Below are positions 1,197-11,448 of a DNA stretch of 64,000 nucleotides, one piece after another. The notes below the pieces were generated by a model. It was not told the origin of the DNA and did no database searches. It saw only the letters and a program-made list of their open reading frames with translations. The DNA is from Gelidibacter japonicus. Lineage in GTDB: Bacteria; Bacteroidota; Bacteroidia; Flavobacteriales; Flavobacteriaceae. The stretch's first letter is position 1, and every line of letters starts with the position of its first letter. Position numbers and translations under genes: made by a program. The DNA is taken from NCBI RefSeq assembly GCF_010725055.1, contig NZ_BJKB01000018.1, positions 1-64,000 of the forward strand, written 5' to 3'.

Positions 1197-2475
1197 GTGT
1201 CCCATTAAAATCGGGACGTTTTAAAAATTAAATAAATTTGGCCCATTAAGGCTATCTCGTTATTTGTCATTTTGAAATTTAGTTTTGCTAAAAAGTTCTC
1301 TAAGATTGGTTTTATCAGTTAGGGAAATACTTAATATCTGTAGCACTTCATACGTGCTCCTACCCAGTTTCATATCGTGCTGAACGATTGCCACGAGGCA
1401 ATAGGTACATATGGTGGCATAGATTTGAATCCGGACAGCATTTTCGGTAATACCCCAGAATTTTTTGATCCTAAGGTGTTGCTTCAGCCATTTAAAAAAG
1501 AGTTCTACCTGCCAGCGGTTTCTATAAAGTTCCGCCACCTGCAGAGCTGAAATGTGAACGGCATTGGTCAAAAGAATAAATTCACGTTTTTGCTCCTCAT
1601 CCCAGTATCTCACCAAGCGAAGTGACCCGGGATAGTACTGTTTTGGATAAAATCCTGTCAATCCGATCGTTTGGTCAGAAAGCACGTTCTTGGGCAATCT
1701 GCGTTTCCATTTGAGAGGTTTATACTTAAGATTTCTCTTTGCTCTGATCACAAAATAAGCTCCTATTTGATGGATCTTATATAGCATCTTAAAATTATTG
1801 TAGGCTCGATCAAATATATAGTAAGAATCTGGCTCATAAGGGATCTCTTTCATCGTTTTTGAATCGTGCATAGAAGCTTCAGTGAACATCATACAGTGTG
1901 TATATTTTGATACCGCCTTTATTCCTCCGGAACTTTGCCCACCAAAACACGGAAAGGCAGAGGTCGATTGTTGTCGAATCGAAAGCATAAACGTTACCGC
2001 CAAGATTGAAGATATTGACAGCTTTCCTCGATCTTGCTTGGTTAATCAAGTAGTAGGCATATTCTTCAAAAACATGATAGTTTCTGTCCTGATTTGCTCT
2101 TGCCAAAGATGATCTTGAGACATTCTTCCCCATTCCCAAATGATAGCATTTGGAGTTATGGGCTTCTTAGGCGACAATCAGACTCCTTAAACTTTCACGG
2201 TTGGATAGCTGACCGAACATTAAAACAAGCAGCTGAATCCAGCAGCTAAAATGCTTGACGTATTTGTCTCCTTTATACTTCGATACAATCCGATTGAACC
2301 TACTCCGGTTGAGGAACGAGACCAATTGGACGAAAACATATTTATCTTGGAACATAGGTTGGCAGATTGATCTGACAACAAAGCTAGGTATTCATGTACG
2401 TTCGGCTGACAAACCACTATAACTAACTAAATTTCAAATATTTCAAAGAACAATTTCAAGTTTTAATCGGGCAGC
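1197..2475 (-). mobile_element. IS4-family insertion sequence remnant with imperfect ends
   Basis: An imperfect terminal inverted repeat frames a broken IS4-type transposase. The left end near 1197-1210 reads GTGTCCCATTAAAA. The right end near 2459-2473 carries the related inverse AGTTTTAATCGGGCA. About 11 of 13 positions match when one base is skipped. No target duplication was established. The element is dead because its transposase is broken. Confidence 0.6.
1260..2355 (-). pseudogene. Broken IS4-family transposase (DUF4372 N-terminus plus DDE domain)
   Basis: The N-terminal piece (2355-2167) is the DUF4372 domain common in Bacteroidetes IS4 transposases (MFQDKYVFVQLVSFLNRSRF). A TAA at 2164-2166 interrupts it, and the same frame resumes with the first catalytic Asp block (YAFDSTTIDLCLSVFWW). 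The frame is then lost after KGGIKIYTLYDVH, where about ten residues appear deleted. The C-terminal 200 codons continue in another frame with the second Asp (YYIFDRAYNNF) and the Y-R-E-K signature (YRNRWQVELFFKWLKQHL). One stop and one deletion/frameshift make it inactive, but decay is modest. Confidence 0.88.
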
Positions 2476-2495: not shown

Positions 2496-3257
2496 TCATT
2501 GTCCAAATCTCAGCATAGATTCCAGGATATTATTAATTTCATTTCGCTTTTGCCTTGAAACTGGGATTTCTTTTTTATCATTCATAAGTACTGTTCCTCC
2601 ATCTTGTTTAAGAATGGCTTTGACAAATTGGGGGTTGATTAAATGGGATTGATGTACACGTAAAAAGCCATAATCACTAAGCATTTTTTCTATTTCCTTA
2701 AGGGTTTTACATATAAGCAGATTGTTTTCATTGACTAAAAAAAAACAAGTATAGTTGTTATCTGATTCACAACGTACAATATTTTTTATATCCACAATAT
2801 GGTAGCCTACTGCTGTTGGCAACGCAATTCTAGAAGCATTAATTACCGAACTGTTTATATTTTTATGCAATAATTGCCATTGTTCTATACTGGTCTTTTT
2901 GCGTCGTTTTTCCCAGTTGAATAACGCATTTACGATGCTTTTCTCTGTTATGGGTTTTAGCAAGTAGTTAATGGCACTGTACTCAAAGGCGCGAATGGCA
3001 TATTGGTCATAAGCAGTGGTAAAAATAATATCGAAATCTATGGGTAATATTTTATCCAACAAAGTAAAACCATTAAGATTTGGCATTTCGATATCTAAAA
3101 ATAGAAGGTCTGGTTGATTGGTTTTAATAAACTCTAAACCTGTTTCTGGGTTGCAAAATGTTCCGATAATCTCATAGTCAATATGTACTTTTTTTATAAG
3201 ACTTGTCAGTACGTTTATGCAATGTGCTTCATCATCTATAATTATAATTTTTTTCAT
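2496..3257 (-). CDS. LytTR-family response regulator
   Basis: A DNA-binding response regulator of 253 residues. Residues 1-120 are a receiver domain with the acidic pair (IIDDEAH), the phospho-acceptor Asp (LLFLDIEMPNLNGF), the Thr (FTTAYD) and the Lys (LLKPI). Residues about 145-245 are a LytTR DNA-binding domain (YHIVDIKNIVRCESDNNYT ... RVHQSHLINP). The start codon lies 3 bases after the stop of the upstream kinase gene, so the two form a co-translated pair. LytTR proteins bind two direct repeats about two helical turns apart, and such repeats lie upstream of the kinase at 5371-5457. The regulator probably controls its own operon and the facing secreted-protein genes (inference). Confidence 0.95.
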   Translation of the reverse strand: MKKIIIIDDEAHCINVLTSLIKKVHIDYEIIGTFCNPETGLEFIKTNQPDLLFLDIEMPNLNGFTLLDKILPIDFDIIFTTAYDQYAIRAFEYSAINYLLKPITEKSIVNALFNWEKRRKKTSIEQWQLLHKNINSSVINASRIALPTAVGYHIVDIKNIVRCESDNNYTCFFLVNENNLLICKTLKEIEKMLSDYGFLRVHQSHLINPQFVKAILKQDGGTVLMNDKKEIPVSRQKRNEINNILESMLRFGQ

Positions 3258-3260
3258 TGT

Positions 3261-5288
3261 CTAATCGTTATATGTTATGGTTATGCGGGTGCCAGAAGGT
3301 ATGCCGTTATCTTCCAAGTCCAAAATGTTGAGTTGCATTTGGGTATGACTTACATGGTTGTACAGTGTTAACCGTTCCTTTGTAATATTGGTTCCAGCAG
3401 ATTGATGTGTTTTTTTTGTCTTGCTACTTTCTTTTCGTCCAATTCCGTTATCTTCTATAGTAATTTGCAGTTGTTTGGAAGTGTCAAACACCAAGGAAAG
3501 TTTTTTTTCAGGTCTATAACTTGGATAAAGTCCATGCCATATAGCGTTCTCTACAAAAGGTTGTAACAATAAAGGAGGTATGCTATATTGTGAAAGTATT
3601 TCACGGGAATCACATTGGATGACATAGGAAAAATCATTCCCTAGCCTACTTTTTTCTAGAGAAAGGTATAGTTCTAATATTTCAAGTTCTTCTTCTACGG
3701 TAATAGTATTTTTACTGCTGTTTTGCAAGATGTTACGAAGCAATAAAGAAAAATTATCCAAATAACTAATGGCATCTTCCTCTCGTGACTGCATGACTAA
3801 ATTTTTAAGAGCATTTAAACTATTGAATATAAAATGAGGATTCATTTGCGAGCGCAATGCCAACATTTCCATGTTTCGTAAACGTTCATTAAATGATTTT
3901 TTAAGTTGTTCTTCTTTTTGTTTTTCTATTTCAGAATAGAGCTGTACAAGTTCTTCAGTTTTTTGGTTGATTTGATTATCCAATTCTTTGCGCATGTTGC
4001 TTTCCATAATTTTGTTTTGCTGTAATTGCTCAATCAATTTTTGGCTCGTCTTTTCTTTTTCTTTTTGGACAAGAAACATACTTTCTCCTAAAGCTATTGA
4101 AAAACAGAGCACTTCGCCCAGAAGTCCAGCCATAAAGATGACGTTTTGAGAATAGAAAAAATTGAAGATACCACCTGGTACTAAATGAAGGCCGGTGTAA
4201 TAAACAATTGAGGAAAGAACAGCTCCTATAAAAAAGAAACTCTGTCCCAAAATAAAGTACTTTAACAGTGGATGTTTTACCTTATAGATAATCCAAAAAA
4301 AGAAGAATAGGTTAAGTGGTAGAACAATGGTACGGATAATGATGGATGCCATTCTTCTGACTTCCAAATTGACCCATAAAAGATTAAAACCAAAGCATAA
4401 TATGGCATAGGCAAAACAAACAATACCAAATATTTTTAATGCCCTGACCAGTTTAAGGCTAGAGGTTTTTACATCAAGTAAATGCAGTATAAATAATATG
4501 TAAAAACCAATAAAGGTAAATTGTACAGATTCTGAAATCAGGACTGAAAAATAAGGAAAGTGCTGGGCAAGGTTTGCTATGGTTGCAGGTGTGGTCTGTA
4601 ATACCAAAAACGCATAAACAATTTGAAAAAACAAATACCCCAAATAGTAAAAATAGATACGTTTCTGCAAACGGATACAAAACACCAATACAAAGAGCAT
4701 AATACAGCACAGGGAAATCAAGTAAACATATATAAATGCTATGGGAGGATAATGCACTGCCCTAATATTTTTCAAAAGTTCAAGATAGCCTAACTTGGAA
4801 AACAGGATAGGAAAAGAGGTGCTGTTTTTTTTATAATCAGTACTCAATTTTATATAACATTGCGACTGTTGCAATGGTGAAAGTTTGAGTTCGGTAAAAA
4901 AGTACGATTTAGGTTTAGGGCGTTGGTTTAATGGCCTGAAGTAGCCATTTTTGTAATGTTCGTACCTGCCTTCTTTTTCCAGATAAATGTCGATGTAGTG
5001 ACCTTCATAAAAAAGATAGGTTGTAAGAATATCTTGAGTGGTGTTTTCTATTTTAAAATTAATCCAAACCACTGTGTCATGATTTGCTGTAAAAGTAGAG
5101 TCGTAAGCTTTCCAAGAAGTACTTATTATAATGTCATTAAACGTAACATCGCTACTGCTTGTTATGGCTTGCACCTCTGGATTACGTATTAGGTCCAACC
5201 TTGTGGCAATGCTGTCCACCTTTATCTGGGCAGATAACGTGTAAAACCCTGAAAGAAAGAGAAGCATAATGATTGCTTGTTTTTTCAT
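3261..5288 (-). CDS. Seven-transmembrane LytS-type sensor histidine kinase
   Basis: The start is placed at the internal Met (MKKQAIIMLLFLSGFYTLSAQ), which begins a clear signal peptide, giving 675 residues. An exported sensory domain of the 7TMR-DISM extracellular 2 type occupies about residues 25-165 (FNDIIISTSWKAYD, WINFKIENTTQ). About seven membrane helices follow (175-395), then a coiled coil (400-465). The His_kinase domain has the phospho-His in QMNPHFIFNSLN, an N box (PFVENAIWHGL) and a G box (EDNGIG). This arrangement is typical of Bacteroidetes LytS/YehU-like kinases. It presumably senses a carbohydrate-like or envelope signal outside the inner membrane, but the ligand is unknown. 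It is the first gene of the kinase-regulator operon. Confidence 0.93.
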   Translation of the reverse strand: MKKQAIIMLLFLSGFYTLSAQIKVDSIATRLDLIRNPEVQAITSSSDVTFNDIIISTSWKAYDSTFTANHDTVVWINFKIENTTQDILTTYLFYEGHYIDIYLEKEGRYEHYKNGYFRPLNQRPKPKSYFFTELKLSPLQQSQCYIKLSTDYKKNSTSFPILFSKLGYLELLKNIRAVHYPPIAFIYVYLISLCCIMLFVLVFCIRLQKRIYFYYLGYLFFQIVYAFLVLQTTPATIANLAQHFPYFSVLISESVQFTFIGFYILFILHLLDVKTSSLKLVRALKIFGIVCFAYAILCFGFNLLWVNLEVRRMASIIIRTIVLPLNLFFFFWIIYKVKHPLLKYFILGQSFFFIGAVLSSIVYYTGLHLVPGGIFNFFYSQNVIFMAGLLGEVLCFSIALGESMFLVQKEKEKTSQKLIEQLQQNKIMESNMRKELDNQINQKTEELVQLYSEIEKQKEEQLKKSFNERLRNMEMLALRSQMNPHFIFNSLNALKNLVMQSREEDAISYLDNFSLLLRNILQNSSKNTITVEEELEILELYLSLEKSRLGNDFSYVIQCDSREILSQYSIPPLLLQPFVENAIWHGLYPSYRPEKKLSLVFDTSKQLQITIEDNGIGRKESSKTKKTHQSAGTNITKERLTLYNHVSHTQMQLNILDLEDNGIPSGTRITITYND

Positions 5289-5370
5289 TTTGCCATATAT
5301 TTTTAGCCAAAAGCATCTAACCATTCAATTGTTTACAATATATAAAATGATTTCTACTCCTTTATACGAA

Positions 5371-5457
5371 ATTTAGAATTCGGCTGTCTGGGTTTAGAAT
5401 TTGGTCGGTTAAATCTGCTTTTTCCAAATTCTAAATGGAATCTACCAAATTCTAAAT
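5371..5457. promoter_or_regulatory. Candidate LytTR operator: two opposed pairs of 12-bp direct repeats
   Basis: Four copies of one 12-mer lie between the divergent genes. TTTAGAATTCGG (5372-5383) and TTTAGAATTTGG (5393-5404) point left. CCAAATTCTAAA (5424-5435 and 5445-5456) points right. Within each pair the offset is exactly 21 bp, two turns of DNA, as known for LytTR-type regulators. The array is symmetric about base 5414. A promoter-like -7 box stands at mirrored distances on both sides: TAAGTTTG at 5486-5493 (+) and TATATTGT at 5342-5335 (-). Sequence and geometry are seen directly; binding by the neighbouring regulator is inferred. Confidence 0.75.
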
Positions 5458-5462
5458 ATGTG

Positions 5463-5493
5463 TTTTTAAAACAACTATTGATGGTTAAGTTTG
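5463..5493 (+). promoter_or_regulatory. Promoter of the secreted-protein operon
   Basis: The -7 box TAAGTTTG (5486-5493) matches the Bacteroidetes TAnnTTTG consensus. A poor -33 box (TTTT, 5463-5466) lies 19 bp upstream. The nearest operator repeat ends at 5456, just before the -33 box, as expected for an activator-dependent promoter. Confidence 0.6.
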
Positions 5494-5509
5494 TTTCAAA
5501 ACAATAATT

Positions 5510-6343
5510 ATGAAAAGGTCAAGGCACATAATATTACTTTTGTTGGTGGTGGGTTTTACACAAACCTCAGAGGCTCAATTTTTAAAAAAACTCAAGAAAA
5601 GGATTGAAGAGAAGGTAGAGCAGACTGTTGTTGAGAAAACTGCGGATAAAGCTTCCGAAAAAGCATCCAATTCCATGGACAAAATTTTTGATGTTAACCT
5701 CAATAGTCCTCAGGTAAAGGGCAAAAAGGTAGATGCCAAAAATGTTCCAGATTCTTATCAATTTTCATATAAATACCAGTTAAAGATGACTACTGCAAGC
5801 GGAGAGATGGACTTAGACTATTTTCTTGAGCCTGATGCCACATATATAGGTATGAAAATGAATGCAGGCGTACCGTTTTTTATGGTGACTGACGACGATG
5901 CCAAGACCACATATATGTTTATGGAAAGCGGTGGCAACAAAGTGGTAACGGCAACTTCGATTGATATGGATGAATCTATGGAGGATATTGAAGACATTGA
6001 GTCTCCATGGCTGGAAGATATGACCATAACAGACCTGCCCAACAAAATAATTTTGGGCTACAACTGCATAGGCAAAAAGTTTGAAAATGATGCGTATGCA
6101 TTTATATCCTATTTTACTGTAGATGCGCCCGTGAGCTTTGACCAAGTGTTCAAATCTGAAATGGATCGTTATCCCGAACCTATAAAAGAACAGTTCAAAA
6201 ATTATGAGGGTGCACTTTTAATGCATATGGAAATGATCGATAAAACAAACAAAGGTAAAAAAAATACTTCTGGAACTATGGAGTGTGTGGCCATTGAAGC
6301 TGTAGACTATAAGTTTAGCACCAAAGATTATTTAAAACTATAA
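5510..6343 (+). CDS. Secreted DUF4412-type protein
   Basis: A 277-residue exported protein with a signal peptide (MKRSRHIILLLLVVGFTQTS, cleaved near SEAQF). A charged K/E-rich helical stretch follows (FLKKLKKRIEEKVEQTV), and then a domain resembling DUF4412 (YQFSYKYQLKMTTASGEM ... YFLEPDATYIGMKMN; NKIILGYNCIGKKF). DUF4412 proteins are periplasmic or outer-membrane-associated and have no known reaction. It is the first gene of the run facing the two-component system, 53 bp after the last operator repeat, and is probably the lead gene of that operon. The family call is from recognition of the pattern, not from a search. Confidence 0.8.
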   Translation: MKRSRHIILLLLVVGFTQTSEAQFLKKLKKRIEEKVEQTVVEKTADKASEKASNSMDKIFDVNLNSPQVKGKKVDAKNVPDSYQFSYKYQLKMTTASGEMDLDYFLEPDATYIGMKMNAGVPFFMVTDDDAKTTYMFMESGGNKVVTATSIDMDESMEDIEDIESPWLEDMTITDLPNKIILGYNCIGKKFENDAYAFISYFTVDAPVSFDQVFKSEMDRYPEPIKEQFKNYEGALLMHMEMIDKTNKGKKNTSGTMECVAIEAVDYKFSTKDYLKL

Positions 6344-6358
6344 AATACGATTGACTAT

Positions 6359-6829
6359 ATGAAATCTTTTATCTTTTCTATTGTTTTTATGCTCAGTATG
6401 TTTTGTACTACCGCTTTAGGGCAATCACTTTCAGGCAAACTTATTGTTGAAGGTTGGGGTAAAACCACCACATTGAAATCACAGGAACCAGTAGCTCTGT
6501 TCAAAAACTTTAGAGATGGCAAGCACAAAATCCTGTTCCGTTTTAAAAACACGTCGGGCGAAAAGAGCATTGTACTCTTTCAAATGAAAACCACCATTAT
6601 CCATAATGGAAAAAACATTGGGAGTAGCAGCCGTAACGATTGGCCATGGTTGCCTGGTGATATGTATGTTCCTGTGGAAGCTTTCGATTTTATTCCGTTG
6701 CTTCAAAAAACAGCCAATAAAAACAAAGGCAAGCTTGCTCCGGGAAATTATGAGATACAATTGGAAATGAAACCCGTAAAGGCAAATTCAGAACCCATAA
6801 ATACCACGCTTTCGTTTAAGGTTGGTTAA
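6359..6829 (+). CDS. Exported protein of unknown function
   Basis: 156 residues with a signal peptide (MKSFIFSIVFMLSMFCTTAL, cleaved after ALG). The mature part is about 135 residues and looks like a single beta-rich domain (KILFRFKNTSGEKSIVLFQM; APGNYEIQLEMKPVKAN). No known family is recognised. It starts 15 bp after the preceding stop and so is surely co-transcribed with it. It may be a partner of the DUF4412 protein, but the sequence does not show this. Confidence 0.75.
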   Translation: MKSFIFSIVFMLSMFCTTALGQSLSGKLIVEGWGKTTTLKSQEPVALFKNFRDGKHKILFRFKNTSGEKSIVLFQMKTTIIHNGKNIGSSSRNDWPWLPGDMYVPVEAFDFIPLLQKTANKNKGKLAPGNYEIQLEMKPVKANSEPINTTLSFKVG

Positions 6830-6866
6830 TTTTAGAATAAAACATAAAACCATAAAATAGAAACAC

Positions 6867-8258
6867 ATGAAAACAACATTACAAAATTTTACATTTTTTA
6901 TAGTTTTATCTATATGCACTATCCCATTGTCTTCTGCACAAGGTTGGGAATATGTTGGTACGCCTGGGTTTTCAGGTGGTGGTGTAGATTATACGTCATT
7001 TGCTTTCAATAGTGCCGATGAGCCGTATGTTGCTTTTTTGGATTCTTTACATTTGGGTAAAGCCTCTGTAATGAAATTTAATGGGACTGATTGGGAAGCC
7101 GTAGGAACACGAGGTTTTTCTACTAATCAGGCAGATTGGTGTTCCCTTGCTATCAATGATAGTGGGGAGCCTTACGTAGCTTTCCAAGACAGATCATTTC
7201 TCGCAAGCCAAGCTACGGTGATGAAGTTTGATGGAACCAACTGGGTAAACGTTGGATCGCCAGGTTTTTCTGCTGCTGGAGCTTATTTTGTTTCACTTGC
7301 CATCAACAATGCAGGAGTACCTTATGTAGCTTACAGAGACCACTATAATGGCGATCTCGGAGTAACTGTCATGAAGTTTAATGGAACTAATTGGGAGAAT
7401 GTAGGGAGTCCTGGGTTTTCAGATTATAAGGTAGCCGATGTTTCCCTAAAGCTCGATGCTTCAGGAGTACCTTACGTGGCTTTTAAAGATGCCGAAGGTC
7501 TCTACATGGAACCAAAGAAGATTACTGTAATGAAATTTAATGGCTCAAACTGGGAAGCGGTAGGCATGCCCAGATTTTCTGATGGAGAAGCAAATGACTG
7601 TACTTTAGCAATTAGCGATTCAGGAGAGCCTTATGTGGCTTTTAACGATCAAGCCAATCAATTTAAGGCTACTGTCATGAAATTTAATGGTAGCTCTTGG
7701 GAAACTGTGGGTCCAGCTGGGTTTTCTGAAGATAGAGCATTTAATTTCTCTCTTGCGTTTAGCAGCACAGGAGAACCATATTTAGCTTACATGGACAGGG
7801 AAAATGAAGACAAGGCTACCGTAGTCAAGTTTAATGGAACTAATTGGGAAACAGTTGGAAGCCATGGGTTTTCAGAAGGTAGGGCATTTCACTCATCTTT
7901 ATTGCTAAACAGTAGTGACGAGCCTTATTTGGCAATTAGCGAAACGTCTTTAATAGGTTTATCTTACAGAAGAGCTTCCGTTATGAAATTCACAAACACC
8001 ATGAGCATTCAAGACAACGAAGTTTCAAGGGTTTCGTTATATCCCAATCCAGCCAATAATATGGTAACACTTGAAAATCTACCCTATGGCGAAACGCACA
8101 TAAAAGTTTTTGACATTACTGGGAAAGAAGTGTTTTCAATAAAAAGTAACACAGCAATAGAAACCATTGATACTACCAATTTTGCTAATGGTGTGTACCT
8201 TGTTAGCATAGCTAATAAAGGAAACCTTGCCCATAAAAAATTGGTGGTAAACAAATAA
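6867..8258 (+). CDS. T9SS cargo: predicted seven-bladed propeller with type A sorting domain
   Basis: 463 residues. A signal peptide (ending near LSSAQ) precedes seven tandem units of about 50 residues, each running W-E-x-VG-x-x-FS ... SGEPYVAF-D ... ATVMKFNGT-N. Their spacing and number suggest a seven-bladed beta-propeller. The last 75 residues are a T9SS type A sorting domain (VSLYPNPANNMVTLENLP ... NGVYLVSIANKGN ... KKLVVNK), so the protein is exported by the type IX system and released or anchored at the surface after sortase cleavage. Substrate or ligand is unknown. The gap to the previous gene is 37 bp. Its sorting domain is very similar to that of the protein at 10975-11448. Confidence 0.9.
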   Translation: MKTTLQNFTFFIVLSICTIPLSSAQGWEYVGTPGFSGGGVDYTSFAFNSADEPYVAFLDSLHLGKASVMKFNGTDWEAVGTRGFSTNQADWCSLAINDSGEPYVAFQDRSFLASQATVMKFDGTNWVNVGSPGFSAAGAYFVSLAINNAGVPYVAYRDHYNGDLGVTVMKFNGTNWENVGSPGFSDYKVADVSLKLDASGVPYVAFKDAEGLYMEPKKITVMKFNGSNWEAVGMPRFSDGEANDCTLAISDSGEPYVAFNDQANQFKATVMKFNGSSWETVGPAGFSEDRAFNFSLAFSSTGEPYLAYMDRENEDKATVVKFNGTNWETVGSHGFSEGRAFHSSLLLNSSDEPYLAISETSLIGLSYRRASVMKFTNTMSIQDNEVSRVSLYPNPANNMVTLENLPYGETHIKVFDITGKEVFSIKSNTAIETIDTTNFANGVYLVSIANKGNLAHKKLVVNK

Positions 8259-8402
8259 ATACAGGACTGTCATTTCAAGGTATGAGAAATGAACAATGAA
8301 ACACTTTTTACAACTGATTGCCACAAAGTAAAGATTGTTTCGTTTTAATCTGCTTTTGAGGGTTGCAATGACTATCCGTAAAAAAACATAAGAAAACATA
8401 CA

Positions 8403-9101
8403 ATGAAACAACAATTACTTACATTTCTTGGTCTACTTCTATGTATTTTAGGATATACACAAACCCTTACCGGAAAACTTGAAAACCCGTTACAGAATAT
8501 GCCCGAAATGGACATAGTACTTTGGCCTTTAGGTATGGACAGTGCTGTAACCATTGGGAAATTGACCGCCAATGGGACTTTGGAATTCAATTTTCCGGAA
8601 AAAGAAGCCTTCCAATCTGCCGATGCGGAAAAACAAATGGTAGTGGACGATTTTAAACATGCACTTCGTTTTAATTGTATTGCGCAGGGCGAATCTGTGT
8701 ACCCAAATGTTAAGGCAACCAGTATAAGTCCCATTTCATTGTGGTACAAAAACCGTTATGTGGGTGTGTTGTTTCCAGTTACCGACGAAGCCCTGATGCA
8801 CTGGCTGGAAGACGAAGCTTACAACAATCCCGTAAAGGGCAAATTTTATGATGTGGTTTACGTTGCTGAAGCCACCACATTTAAAACCGAGTGCGCTATC
8901 ACATTACAGTTTTCAGAAGAAACGGTAAACGCCAGTTACGACTATCAATTGGAACTGGAAGCAGGGTTGAATTTTATAGCCTATACCATTGAAGATATCC
9001 ATAAAATGAATTCCAAGGTTACCTCCAATAAACCCAGTAAGGTTACGGTTAAAAACGTTAAAGCAGAAGATGGTATAAAATGGATTGCGAAATATTTTTA
9101 A
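8403..9101 (+). CDS. Exported protein of unknown function
   Basis: 232 residues with a signal peptide (MKQQLLTFLGLLLCILGYTQ). The mature part has no family I recognise. Visible features are an acidic middle (TDEALMHWLEDEAYNNPVKG) and a beta-rich C-terminal half that ends in a basic stretch (KPSKVTVKNVKAEDGIKWIA). It has no T9SS sorting domain, so it is likely periplasmic or outer-membrane associated. It lies 144 bp after the propeller gene with no terminator seen between, so it is probably part of the same transcript. Confidence 0.75.
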   Translation: MKQQLLTFLGLLLCILGYTQTLTGKLENPLQNMPEMDIVLWPLGMDSAVTIGKLTANGTLEFNFPEKEAFQSADAEKQMVVDDFKHALRFNCIAQGESVYPNVKATSISPISLWYKNRYVGVLFPVTDEALMHWLEDEAYNNPVKGKFYDVVYVAEATTFKTECAITLQFSEETVNASYDYQLELEAGLNFIAYTIEDIHKMNSKVTSNKPSKVTVKNVKAEDGIKWIAKYF

Positions 9102-9157
9102 ACCATTGGAAAAAGCCAAGATGAGTTCTATATGTTGAATTTTAAAACCAAAACCTT

Positions 9158-9748
9158 ATGAGACCCATTTTTTTGATACTGATTTTCATCTTATTTGTGA
9201 CAAGTTCATGCAAGCAATCCTCTGAAAAGGAAAACAATTTGATTGAAGAAAAGATTGATGAGCTCGAAAATTCGACTAAAGTTGGTTCTTGGCAACAAAA
9301 CTTAATAACAACAGAAGCTTTGCAACTAGACCAACTCAAGGCTAAACTGCCTAAACAATTGGCGGGTTTGCCGTTAAGAAGTTCAGATTCGCCAGCACCA
9401 CAAACCGTTATAGGAACTTATAGTTTAAGTACAGACCCTAACCATGAGACCGAAAACATTACTGTGAAGATTTTGGATGGTGCCGGAAATTATGGTTTTG
9501 GGCATGTCAATGCCGTCCATAAAATGATTGCTATGGAAGTAAACAATAAGGGAGATAATAATTGGGCAAAAACCCAAGACCATCAAGGTGTTAGGATTTT
9601 ATTAAAAGAAGAACTTGTAAAAGACATCCAATTTTCAGAACTGCAATACATCAAACAAAGCCGTTACCATATTACCTTAACTGGTAGAAGGTACGACAGT
9701 AAAAAACTCTTACAGGCAAAAAGCGATTTAGGAAAAACCGATTTTTAA
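9158..9748 (+). CDS. Lipoprotein of unknown function
   Basis: 196 residues with a type II signal peptide. The lipobox is FVTSSC with the Cys at position 18, followed by KQSSEKENN. A short charged segment leads to a conserved-looking domain (LPKQLAGLPLRSSDS ... VKILDGAGNYGFGHVNAVHK). I do not recognise the family. It is 56 bp downstream of the preceding exported protein and in the same direction. The lipobox has no acidic residue right after Cys, so surface export by the flavobacterial LES signal is not obvious. Confidence 0.75.
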   Translation: MRPIFLILIFILFVTSSCKQSSEKENNLIEEKIDELENSTKVGSWQQNLITTEALQLDQLKAKLPKQLAGLPLRSSDSPAPQTVIGTYSLSTDPNHETENITVKILDGAGNYGFGHVNAVHKMIAMEVNNKGDNNWAKTQDHQGVRILLKEELVKDIQFSELQYIKQSRYHITLTGRRYDSKKLLQAKSDLGKTDF

Positions 9749-9835
9749 CAGATTGATAAGTTAAAATGAGTTCGGTAAAAAGAATGTATGGAATAGGACA
9801 ATTATAAAAAACGAAATAACAAAAAACAGATTCAC

Positions 9836-10741
9836 ATGAAAACAATACTACACATTATGGTGTTTTTCCTTTTCGGAACCATTTTCGCTCAACAGGGTAT
9901 TAACTATAAGGCCATTGTAAAAGACGGCTCTGGTAACGTGGTTGCCAACGATTTAATACAGGTGCAGTTTACCATTTTACAAGGTGCCACAAGTGTATAT
10001 CAAGAAACCCACAGTCCAACCACCGATGCCAACGGCATTGTTGTTCTAAACATTGGTGAGGGCACACCTATTTCAGGCACATTCAGCACTATTGATTGGA
10101 GTGCAGACGACCACTACCTAAATGTGCAGATAAACACAGGAGGTGGCCTTACGGATATGGGTACGACGCAGTTTATGGCAGTGCCTTATGCCATACACGC
10201 AAAAACTGCAGAAAGTGTAAGCAGTATAACCACCTATTCTGTGGGTGACTTTGCTCACGGAGGCATTGTATTTTGGGTTGACGAAACAGGGCAGCACGGA
10301 CTGGTATGTGCCAAACAAGACCAAAGCACAGGAGTACGTTGGTATGCAGGGACCAACGGCAATACTCAAGCCAGAGGAGACGGACTTTATGCAGGCAAAG
10401 CCAACACATCAATCATTATTGCTGCACAAGTTGCTCTTGGTGATGATGGTAGCACCTACGCAGCCCGTATTTGTAATGAATTACAAATTACAGAAGGCGG
10501 TAATACTTATGGCGATTGGTACTTACCCTCGAGAGAAGAATTAAACCTGATGTATCAAAACAAAGCAGCTATTGATGCCACAGCAGGGGCAAATGGAGGC
10601 AGCAGTTTTGCTAGTACCTACTATTGGAGTTCTACCGAGTACACTTTCGACGGCGCTTGGGGGCAGAACTTCGTCGGTGGTGACCAAATCTACGGCAATA
10701 AGGGCAGCATGGTCAGGGTTCGTGCTGTTCGGGCTTTTTAA
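9836..10741 (+). CDS. DUF1566-type surface protein with hypervariable-looking C-terminus
   Basis: 301 residues. A signal peptide (ending TIFAQ) precedes a domain typical of flavobacterial phage-tail-collar-like surface proteins (GINYKAIVKDGSGNVVAND ... TQFMAVPYAIHAKTA, residues 22-125). A DUF1566 / C-type-lectin-like domain follows (GDFAHGGIVFWVDETGQHGL ... YGDWYLPSREELNLMYQNK, 140-301). The final segment YYWSSTE ... RVRAVRAF frames about 25 residues. In these, 14 codons are of the NNC form, against 6 in the preceding 25 and 0 in the last 8. That is the pattern left when AAC-rich template codons are diversified in a retroelement target. No template repeat or reverse transcriptase lies in the window. 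The ligand is unknown and the protein is probably an adhesin or receptor. Confidence 0.85.
   Translation: MKTILHIMVFFLFGTIFAQQGINYKAIVKDGSGNVVANDLIQVQFTILQGATSVYQETHSPTTDANGIVVLNIGEGTPISGTFSTIDWSADDHYLNVQINTGGGLTDMGTTQFMAVPYAIHAKTAESVSSITTYSVGDFAHGGIVFWVDETGQHGLVCAKQDQSTGVRWYAGTNGNTQARGDGLYAGKANTSIIIAAQVALGDDGSTYAARICNELQITEGGNTYGDWYLPSREELNLMYQNKAAIDATAGANGGSSFASTYYWSSTEYTFDGAWGQNFVGGDQIYGNKGSMVRVRAVRAF
10640..10738 (+). other. Candidate diversity-generating retroelement variable region
   Basis: Codons 269-293 (10640-10714) are dominated by NNC: TAC, TTC, GAC, GGC, AAC, GTC, ATC and AGC occur. Interspersed are seemingly fixed codons such as GCT TGG, CAG and AAG. An apparently fixed tail follows (RVRAVRAF, 10715-10738). 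Adenine-directed mutagenesis of AAC codons yields exactly this NNC set. Codon content is observed; origin by a retroelement acting in trans is inferred. Confidence 0.6.
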
Positions 10742-10745
10742 CTAT

Positions 10746-10912
10746 TGTTCATTGCGAGGAACATAGCGACGAAGCAATCTCATCAAATATTTTCGGTTTC
10801 GACTTCAACTTCGACTTCGATTTCAAAGAGATTGTCACGACCTACAGGTCTCTCAATGACAAAATAAAAAATGCACGTCGTTCCGAGTGAGGTACAAGCG
10901 AAGCAATCTCAA
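10746..10912. repeat. REP-like palindromic repeat cluster
   Basis: Three related arms of about 33-36 bp are present. One starts TCATTGCGAGGAAC and ends AAGCAATCTC (about 10749-10782). One is inverted, GAGATTGTCACGAC to CTCTCAATGAC (10828-10860). One starts CGTCGTTCCGAG and ends AAGCAATCTC (10877-10910). The first two form an imperfect inverted repeat. A short (TTCGAC)-rich tract sits between them. This is the kind of extragenic palindrome scattered in many genomes. Confidence 0.65.
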
Positions 10913-10974
10913 CAATAAAAGAAACAGGTCGCTATGTCCCAATTGTAGTAGTGATAATTATAAAACAAATTGAA

Positions 10975-11448
10975 ATGAAAAACATACTAACATTCATAAT
11001 GGGCTTTGGGTGCTTATGGACACAAGCCCAAACCATCGAAAAATTTTCTATTGATAGTGGTGGTAACATTACTTCAAACGACAACATAGCTATACTTTAT
11101 ACCATAGGTGAAGTAAATGTGCAAGAACTCAATGCAGGTAACATTTTACTTTCAGAAGGATTTATCAGTTCTAACTTTGGTGAAACTTTAAACATTGAAG
11201 TTAGTTCAATAGACAACCAATTGTTGTTGTATCCAAACCCTGCAAAAGATTTGGTGACTTTTGCCAATTTGCCACTTGGCGAAACACAAATAAAGGTTTT
11301 TGACCTATCAGGAAAGGAAGTGTTTTCAAAACATATAAATTCAGAAACTACAACCATAAATACGACCAACTTTGCCAATGGCGTTTACCTTGTTCGTATA
11401 AATTACAATGGGAATGTTGCCCATAAAAAATTGGTTGTTAACAAATAA
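10975..11448 (+). CDS. Small T9SS cargo protein with type A sorting domain
   Basis: 157 residues when started at the Met with a proper signal peptide (MKNILTFIMGFGCLWTQA). An upstream ATG at 10951 would add eight residues ahead of it. A short N-terminal domain (IEKFSIDSGGNITSNDN ... YTIGEVNVQELNAGN ... SEGFIS) is common in small flavobacterial T9SS proteins. The last 75 residues are a type A sorting domain (LLYPNPAKDLVTFANLP ... NGVYLVRINYNGN ... KKLVVNK). It is nearly the same as in the propeller protein, pointing to duplication of that segment. It is the last gene of the run and the function of its short passenger is unknown. Confidence 0.85.
   Translation: MKNILTFIMGFGCLWTQAQTIEKFSIDSGGNITSNDNIAILYTIGEVNVQELNAGNILLSEGFISSNFGETLNIEVSSIDNQLLLYPNPAKDLVTFANLPLGETQIKVFDLSGKEVFSKHINSETTTINTTNFANGVYLVRINYNGNVAHKKLVVNK

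What the first reader, a model, noticed from the sequence alone, without database searches (positions are those of the whole stretch)
5335..5493. Mirror-symmetric LytTR-type operator controlling a two-component system and a facing secreted-protein operon
Four copies of the same 12-mer (one with a single mismatch) lie between the kinase gene and the exported-protein genes. Two are on each strand, each pair spaced exactly 21 bp, and the array is symmetric about 5414. On the plus side a -7 box (TAAGTTTG, 5486) lies at a set distance from the last repeat. At the mirror position on the minus side there is TATATTGT (5342-5335). LytTR regulators are known to bind paired direct repeats about two turns apart, and a LytTR regulator is encoded right here. 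The repeat unit CCAAATTCTAAA is thus a proposed recognition sequence for this regulator. I do not know it as a described motif.
Basis: partly seen in the sequence, partly recalled or inferred. Interest (0 to 1): 0.85.

Follow-up and report, generated by a model that had tools for sequence, protein, structure and literature searches.

The report
LytTR operator with agr-like divergent promoters
A marine bacterium's sensor-regulator gene pair and the secreted-protein genes facing it share a stretch of DNA with two matched pairs of binding sites, very probably the switches that the regulator uses to turn on itself and its target genes; the arrangement is conserved in many relatives and resembles one long known from staphylococci.

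Summary
Four 12-mers (one with a mismatch) form two 21-bp-offset pairs on opposite strands, symmetric about 5414. Each pair ends 29 bp before a -7-type box.

The array is conserved. In the window and 32 named kinase orthologues (48-85% identity), the kinase-side pair is found in 32 of 33 and the facing pair in 24 of 33. In 24 of 24 facing pairs a perfect TAnnTTTG starts 29 bp after the pair, and at none of the other 69 distances tried. Where it could be read, the neighbouring gene is divergent in 23 of 23 loci with a facing pair and 3 of 9 without. The gap between the pairs varies from 17 to 20 bp, so each pair's phase to its own promoter is conserved, not mirror symmetry.

Best reading: two LytTR activator sites, one for autoregulation and one for the facing secreted-protein operon, laid out like S. 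aureus agr P2-P3. Binding and activation are inferred.

Look-alike sites found by DNA pattern lie within 9.4 kb of a LytTR gene in 38 of 51 non-tandem places, 0 of 12 tandem-repeat places. A consensus-free scan of 51 LytTR loci gave little, so this is not shown to be general.

The parts
2496..3257 (-). response regulator, receiver + LytTR DNA-binding domain; presumed binder of the repeats
   Evidence: Pfam Response_reg 4.7e-20, LytTR 3.8e-18
3261..5288 (-). LytS-type sensor histidine kinase (7TMR-DISMED2, 7TM, His_kinase); start taken at 5288 (ORF listed to 5324)
   Evidence: conserved start
5335..5342 (-). -7-type box TATATTGT of the kinase-regulator promoter, 29 bp after the kinase-side pair
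   Evidence: 28-29 bp spacing in orthologues
5372..5383 (-). promoter-proximal half-site, kinase side (CCGAATTCTAAA)
   Evidence: CCAAATTCTAAA in three close relatives
5393..5404 (-). distal half-site, kinase side (CCAAATTCTAAA)
5405..5423 (.). 19-bp gap between the two pairs; sequence differs and length is 17-20 bp in relatives
5424..5435 (+). distal half-site, facing side (CCAAATTCTAAA)
5445..5456 (+). promoter-proximal half-site, facing side (CCAAATTCTAAA)
5463..5467 (+). T-run in the place of a -33 element; its first two columns (22-23 bp before the box) are invariant in 20 distinct facing promoters
5486..5493 (+). -7 box TAAGTTTG of the facing promoter, 29 bp after the facing pair
5510..6343 (+). 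first gene of the facing operon, exported protein with DUF4412
   Evidence: DUF4412, 1.4e-4
6359..11448 (+). rest of the presumed facing operon: exported or lipoproteins at 6359-6829, 6867-8258 (Por_Secre_tail), 8403-9101, 9158-9748, 9836-10741 (Lcl_C) and 10951-11448 (Por_Secre_tail); operon extent not tested
   Evidence: same order in G364 and G045 (first gene interrupted in G045), first five genes in G. sediminis, where the sixth is only a partial frame and the seventh was not listed

Best explanation
Two LytTR activator sites lie back to back. When the kinase phosphorylates the regulator, a regulator dimer binds each pair of 12-bp direct repeats (half-site core RAATWCTA, 21 bp apart, two helical turns). 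If the -7 box lies at -12 to -5, the pair covers about -74 to -42. From there the regulator would recruit RNA polymerase to a promoter with a good -7 box but a poor -33 element. The minus-strand pair would switch on the kinase-regulator genes (positive feedback) and the plus-strand pair the facing secreted-protein operon. Shown: sequence, spacing, conservation and association with LytTR genes. Inferred: binding, phosphorylation dependence, the dimer, and activation rather than repression.
For: The regulator has a receiver and a LytTR domain. Upstream of 33 kinases, direct 12-mer pairs with at least 11/12 identity are found at 66 positions with offset 21 and at 1 with any other offset from 13 to 59. 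The kinase-side pair scores at least 17/24 in 32 of 33 loci and the facing pair at least 18/24 in 24 of 33; shuffled upstream regions reach 17 in 0.76% and 18 in 0.1% of 1980 trials. A perfect TAnnTTTG starts 29 bp after the facing pair in 24 of 24 and at none of the other 69 distances; on the kinase side a box with at least 5/6 matches lies at 28 bp in 15 and 29 bp in 13 of 32, the other four being TATATTGT at 29 bp. The neighbouring gene is divergent in 23 of 23 readable loci with a facing pair against 3 of 9 without (Fisher p 9e-5, not corrected for relatedness). In the window and three close relatives the repeats differ at one base while the 19-bp centre varies. DNA-pattern searches find the same geometry near other LytTR genes. 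The inferred centre, -58, is like that given for AgrA's proximal repeats, about -60 (PMC4227749, passages); LytTR repeats of LRS operons lie just upstream of -35 (PMC6193735, passages and section 9).
Against: No binding or transcript data. L129 lacks a clear kinase-side pair (16/24) and L119 is weak (17/24). Judged by self-similarity alone, the best 12-mer pair upstream has offset 21 in 23 of 33 loci and another offset in 10. Three loci (L126, L129, L136) have a divergent neighbour but no facing pair. A consensus-free scan of 51 other LytTR loci found only 3 pairs at offset 21 with a box (at 31-32 bp), against 0-2 at each other offset. Orthologues are related, so counts are not independent. 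The kinase-side box of the window matches TAnnTTTG at only 4 of 6 positions.
Confidence: 0.88

Rival explanations
1. The four repeats are one cooperative operator: two dimers join across the 17-20-bp gap and set both promoters together.
For: The inner gap stays within 17-20 bp in 24 of 24 loci with both pairs, about three turns between the inner repeats.
Against: The gap length and sequence vary while each pair's spacing to its own box hardly does. In the 6 loci with a co-directional neighbour the facing pair is absent and the kinase-side pair persists.
Confidence: 0.2
2. The repeats are a repressor site or the site of another regulator, not of the LytTR protein.
For: No binding data; other proteins also bind direct repeats.
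Against: Placement upstream of the -35 region is that of an activator. The 21-bp repeat geometry and its co-location with LytTR genes elsewhere point to LytTR proteins.
Confidence: 0.08
3. Chance or a dispersed repeat element.
For: Single 12-mers occur at chance level, and 7-bp tandem repeats of similar letters are common in several genomes of the family.
Against: The array is the only match listed in its genome and is conserved in orthologues of about 50% kinase identity in exact register with a promoter box.
Confidence: 0.01

Closest known systems
Staphylococcus aureus agr P2-P3 intergenic region, bound by AgrA
   Same: A LytTR response regulator, direct repeats upstream of two divergent promoters, one for the regulator's own operon and one for the effector; proximal repeats centred near -60 (PMC4227749, passages), here about -58 by inference.
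   Different: No AgrB in this genome; the kinase is 7TMR-DISM/LytS type; the target is a secreted-protein operon, not a regulatory RNA; the promoter has a Bacteroidota-type -7 box; the half-site sequence differs (agr half-site recalled, from no call).
LytTR Regulatory Systems (LRS), S. mutans HdrRM/BrsRM and the Bacteroides LRS-like operons
   Same: Direct repeats (9 bp, mostly 12-bp spacer, so a 21-bp offset) just upstream of the regulator's own promoter, positive autoregulation. B. thetaiotaomicron and B. ovatus are listed with 11-bp repeats, 11-bp spacer and a TATCTTTG box (PMC6193735 Table 3).
   Different: LRS pair a LytTR protein with a membrane inhibitor; here it is a two-component pair with a receiver domain. 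Repeat sequence differs, and repeats to box is 34 bp in Bacteroides (my sum of 11, 4 and 19) against 29 here.
Second repeat class found here (NCGAATWCTAAA) near other LytTR regulators in Flavobacteriaceae
   Same: Same 21-bp offset and 29 bp to a TAnnTTTG-type box.
   Different: Different half-site letters and targets; in L172 a Reg_prop kinase and a VIT/VWA protein.

Membership tests
LytTR-bound activator site | a LytTR regulator encoded nearby | tested here: met
   Pfam LytTR 3.8e-18
LytTR-bound activator site | two direct repeats offset by about 21 bp | tested here: met
LytTR-bound activator site | repeats just upstream of the core promoter at a fixed distance | tested here: met
   29 bp to TAnnTTTG in 24 of 24 facing promoters; starts not mapped
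LytTR-bound activator site | half-site resembles the described LytTR consensus | tested here: inconclusive
   compared by eye only with the repeats in PMC6193735 Table 3: partial likeness
LytTR-bound activator site | regulator binds the repeats and activates | not testable with these tools
   needs EMSA, footprint and reporters
agr quorum-sensing system | divergent promoters each with a LytTR-type repeat pair | tested here: met
agr quorum-sensing system | AgrB (peptide-processing protease) encoded with the regulator | tested here: not met
   AgrB PF04647: no match at E<=0.001 in this genome (among 14 control genomes it rang in 1, below cut-off). AgrD, a short peptide, was not searched for
LRS | LytTR protein with a membrane inhibitor instead of a kinase | tested here: not met
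   regulator has a receiver domain, partner is a histidine kinase

The most novel reading that the evidence does not exclude
The kinase, regulator and two-promoter array form a portable switch whose cargo is exchanged: the facing promoter stays while the secreted-protein genes behind it change (DUF4412 operon, a lipoprotein with collagen-like GxY stretches, a 401-402-residue lipoprotein and others). A subset of Flavobacteriaceae LytTR pairs share one promoter grammar (12-9-12-29-TAnnTTTG), in which a few LytTR residues (candidates 169, 235, 236) choose between CCAAAT and ACGAAT half-sites.
Probability: 0.4. Interest if true: 0.6.

Novelty: new member of a known kind. Interest (0 to 1): 0.45.

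Why it matters
LytTR genes are numerous in this family: 4 to 36 LytTR domains in 57 of the 58 genomes, 1 in the other (genomes that had a match). The searches named in the report showed no described operator for them in Flavobacteriaceae, only one predicted Bacteroides case. A conserved half-site with a fixed distance to the -7 box gives a directly testable recognition sequence, lets targets be predicted from sequence, and offers two half-site classes for working out how LytTR domains read DNA.

Tried and rejected
Relatives of the DUF4412 gene were searched first; most homologues are distant, so the kinase was used as the anchor instead. The first family-wide pattern search was full of 7-bp tandem repeats; adding the -7 box reduced this but 12 of 63 non-orthologous places were still tandem. 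Mirror symmetry as the conserved property was rejected because the inner gap varies from 17 to 20 bp. A -33 TTG was looked for in the facing promoters: 6 of 20 have TTG at the right distance against 4.6 expected by shuffling, so no TTG, but a T-T pair is invariant there. A consensus-free scan of 51 LytTR loci gave little. A pair that one search had shown in L097 and that I first took for a site is a 7-bp tandem repeat (period-7 agreement 0.77), which is why one search left it out; it is withdrawn, although notebook entry 3 names it. An earlier count gave about 77 places; the recount is 75. Mapping the specificity residues onto a solved LytTR-DNA complex failed: the profile search matched only 3d6w at E<=0.01. 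One search stopped on a missing file; one search repeated the comparison from the alignment already made. The LytTR listing was cut off, so neighbourhoods were fetched instead. The upstream regions of the five more distant kinases (L091-L095) were printed but not scored. Structure prediction was not used.

Full report
WHAT IS THERE. Each pair ends exactly 29 bp before its box: TAAGTTTG at 5486 (+) and TATATTGT at 5342-5335 (-). A single 12-mer is unremarkable (19 matches with up to 2 mismatches against 19.9 expected), but the exact pair occurs once in the 4.67-Mb genome, and with 3 mismatches allowed only this array is listed there. To the left lie a response regulator with receiver and LytTR domains and a LytS-type kinase with 7TMR-DISM sensor domains; to the right a run of exported proteins beginning with a DUF4412 protein, two of them with Por_Secre_tail.

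CONSERVATION. A kinase search of 397 genomes of the same family (two candidates scored per genome) matched 12: the window's own, three at 83-85% identity, three at 50-51% and five at 30-34% over part of the kinase. The three close ones carry all four repeats, perfect, and the 19-bp centre between the pairs differs. At 50-51%, G034 keeps both pairs in the same 12-9-12-19-12-9-12 layout, the facing pair degenerate; G351 and G418 show the kinase-side pair only (read by eye). The five distant ones were not scored. A search of named genomes with the kinase alignment returned 35 loci; 32 are orthologues at 48-85% (L107-L138: Gelidibacter, Xanthomarina, Flagellimonas, Maribacter, Tamlana, Confluentibacter, Aequorivita, Bizionia, Winogradskyella, Oceanihabitans and others). 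The other three, at 34-38% over part of the kinase, were left out. Some of the 32 are the same genomes as G handles, and several Aequorivita loci are near-identical, so they are not independent.

GEOMETRY. Over these 32 and the window, the kinase-side pair scores at least 17 of 24 in 32 of 33 (L129 fails with 16) and the facing pair at least 18 of 24 in 24 of 33. Without any consensus, direct 12-mer pairs with at least 11 of 12 matches upstream of the kinases occur at 66 positions with offset 21 and at one with any other offset from 13 to 59; the single best pair of a locus has offset 21 in 23 of 33. Shuffled upstream regions reach 17 in 0.76% and 18 in 0.1% of 1980 trials. The box was not used to choose the facing pairs, yet a perfect TAnnTTTG begins 29 bp after 24 of 24 of them (15 distinct 33-mers) and at none of the other 69 distances examined. 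On the kinase side a box with at least 5 of 6 matches begins at 28 bp in 15 and at 29 bp in 13 of 32; the remaining four have TATATTGT at 29 bp. In 20 distinct facing promoters the fully invariant columns all lie in the half-sites, in the -7 box and in a T-T pair 22-23 bp before the box. The gap between the two pairs is 17, 18, 19 or 20 bp in 3, 9, 9 and 3 loci. What is kept is therefore each pair's phase to its own promoter, not the mirror symmetry.

LINK TO THE FACING GENE. The nearest upstream gene is divergent in 23 of 23 loci with a facing pair (L115 ends too soon to tell) and in 3 of 9 without (L126, L129, L136) (Fisher p 9e-5, not corrected for relatedness). In L108 the neighbour is a piece of the interrupted DUF4412 gene; in L110 the script named a 114-residue ORF, where one search shows a divergent 311-residue gene. 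The facing gene itself changes: DUF4412 proteins in the window and in L107, L112 and L117 (Pfam for the window and L117; L107 and L112 by their N-termini), a lipoprotein with collagen-like stretches in Flagellimonas (my reading; no Pfam match for L111), a 401-402-residue lipoprotein in eight Aequorivita loci (no Pfam match for L120). Relatives of the window genes at 6359 and 8403 recur in L111 (N-terminal likeness seen by eye).

LINK TO LytTR. A pattern made of two degenerate half-sites plus the -7 box, searched in 397 genomes with 3 mismatches, gave 75 listed places against 22 for the backwards control (both counted by eye). Twelve belong to the orthologues above. For the other 63, neighbourhoods were fetched and searched with a LytTR profile made from these regulators. 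Of 33 places with NCGAAT-type half-sites, 29 have a LytTR gene within 8.9 kb in the stretch examined (25 within 8 kb); two more (G043) have one 6.6 and 9.4 kb away in L173, 31 in all. G057 and one G344 site have none. Of 18 other non-tandem places, 7 have one and 11 have none. Of 12 places that are 7-bp tandem repeats, none has; two of these lie on contigs of 4.9 and 11.2 kb. From the densities I estimate 6-7% by chance. Many of the 31 look like one regulon seen in several genera, so they are not independent. In L172, for example, a Reg_prop kinase and LytTR regulator lie in the same cluster and a VIT/VWA protein gene follows one site. In L185 and L186 the pair stands directly before the kinase gene.

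LIMITS OF THAT LINK. The pattern resembles the window's own repeats, so it can only find look-alikes. A consensus-free scan of 51 LytTR loci (11 of this genome; 40 strong LytTR hits, one per genome, all from genomes with a match) found 3 pairs at offset 21 with a box, at 31-32 bp, against 0-2 at each other offset. The layout is thus not general for LytTR genes, or half-sites elsewhere are too degenerate to see this way.

HOW IT MOST LIKELY WORKS. In F. psychrophilum the sigma-A -7 box TAnnTTTG lies at -12 to -5 (PMC9723704, passages). Carried over, the repeats here cover -74 to -42, with starts expected near 5498 (+) and 5330 (-). AgrA binds direct repeats upstream of the divergent agr promoters with the proximal repeats centred near -60 (PMC4227749, passages). 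In S. mutans LRS operons the repeats lie 4-11 bp upstream of -35, elsewhere mostly 10 bp, and for HdrR they mediate positive autoregulation (PMC6193735, passages and section 9). By analogy, phosphorylated regulator would bind each pair as a dimer and recruit polymerase, giving positive feedback on the kinase-regulator operon and activation of the facing operon. Sequence, spacing, conservation and gene association are shown; binding, phosphorylation dependence, the dimer and the sign of regulation are inferred.

KNOWN OR NEW. In its layout it works like agr P2-P3 but is not an agr system (no AgrB in the genome), and it is not an LRS. The closest Bacteroidota precedent is a predicted pair of 11-bp repeats before LRS-like operons of B. 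thetaiotaomicron and B. ovatus (PMC6193735 Table 3). Full-text searches for LytTR with Flavobacterium, with Bacteroidetes and binding site, with Bacteroidetes and promoter, with Flavobacteriaceae and two-component, with direct repeats and 21 bp, with Bacteroidota and operator, and two wider ones listed no paper whose title or opening abstract describes such an operator in Flavobacteriaceae. Only listings were seen, some of them capped; of these papers PMC6193735 and PMC4227749 were read in passages, and PMC5395568 was checked for its LytTR passages, which only count LytTR genes. Only open-licence papers are held. I file it as a new member of a known kind.

SPECIFICITY LEAD. LytTR domains of 31 CCAAAT-class regulators (31 of the 32 named loci; L136 gave no hit at the cut-off) and 26 ACGAAT-class regulators differ nearly completely at 169 (Y/N), 235 (R/V), 236 (Q/R) and 147 (P/H), among many other positions. 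The classes are also separate lineages, so this is only a lead.

Noticed in passing
G043 C4:187399 and 190186, G142 C5:200435-210777, G332 C1:687918 and 690316 (L172, L173, L175): A second repeat class (NCGAATWCTAAA pairs, 21-bp offset, 29 bp to a TAnnTTTG-type box) beside a kinase and LytTR regulator; in L172 the kinase has Reg_prop repeats and a VIT/VWA protein gene follows one site.
   Followed up: partly
G000 C4:47355-47424 (L174, L235): One site like the second class in this genome, before a 225-residue exported protein, with no LytTR gene in the fetched 18 kb around it.
   Followed up: partly
G351 C1, L089: The orthologous system looks decaying: the regulator has N for D in LLFLDIEMP and the kinase frame holds a TAA.
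   Followed up: no
G045 C15:3193-4021 (L004, L031): The DUF4412 gene of Xanthomarina gelatinilytica is interrupted although both promoter sequences look intact.
   Followed up: no
window 2496-11448 and L086, L087: The kinase of G. sediminis is 95% identical to that of Xanthomarina but 83% to the window's, and other Gelidibacter species (L123, L126, L128) have an orthologue of about 50%, which suggests horizontal transfer of the locus.
   Followed up: partly
window 5335-5342: The kinase-side box TATATTGT also fits TAnnTTGY, the SM5 promoter motif reported for F. psychrophilum (PMC9723704, passages).
   Followed up: no
window 1260-2139: A piece of a DDE transposase (1260-2003) and an overlapping 86-residue frame (1879-2139, not scanned) lie downstream of the regulator gene.
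   Followed up: no
G381 C1, G439 C1, G049 C11 and others: 7-bp tandem repeats such as CCAAATT are common in several Flavobacteriaceae genomes.
   Followed up: no
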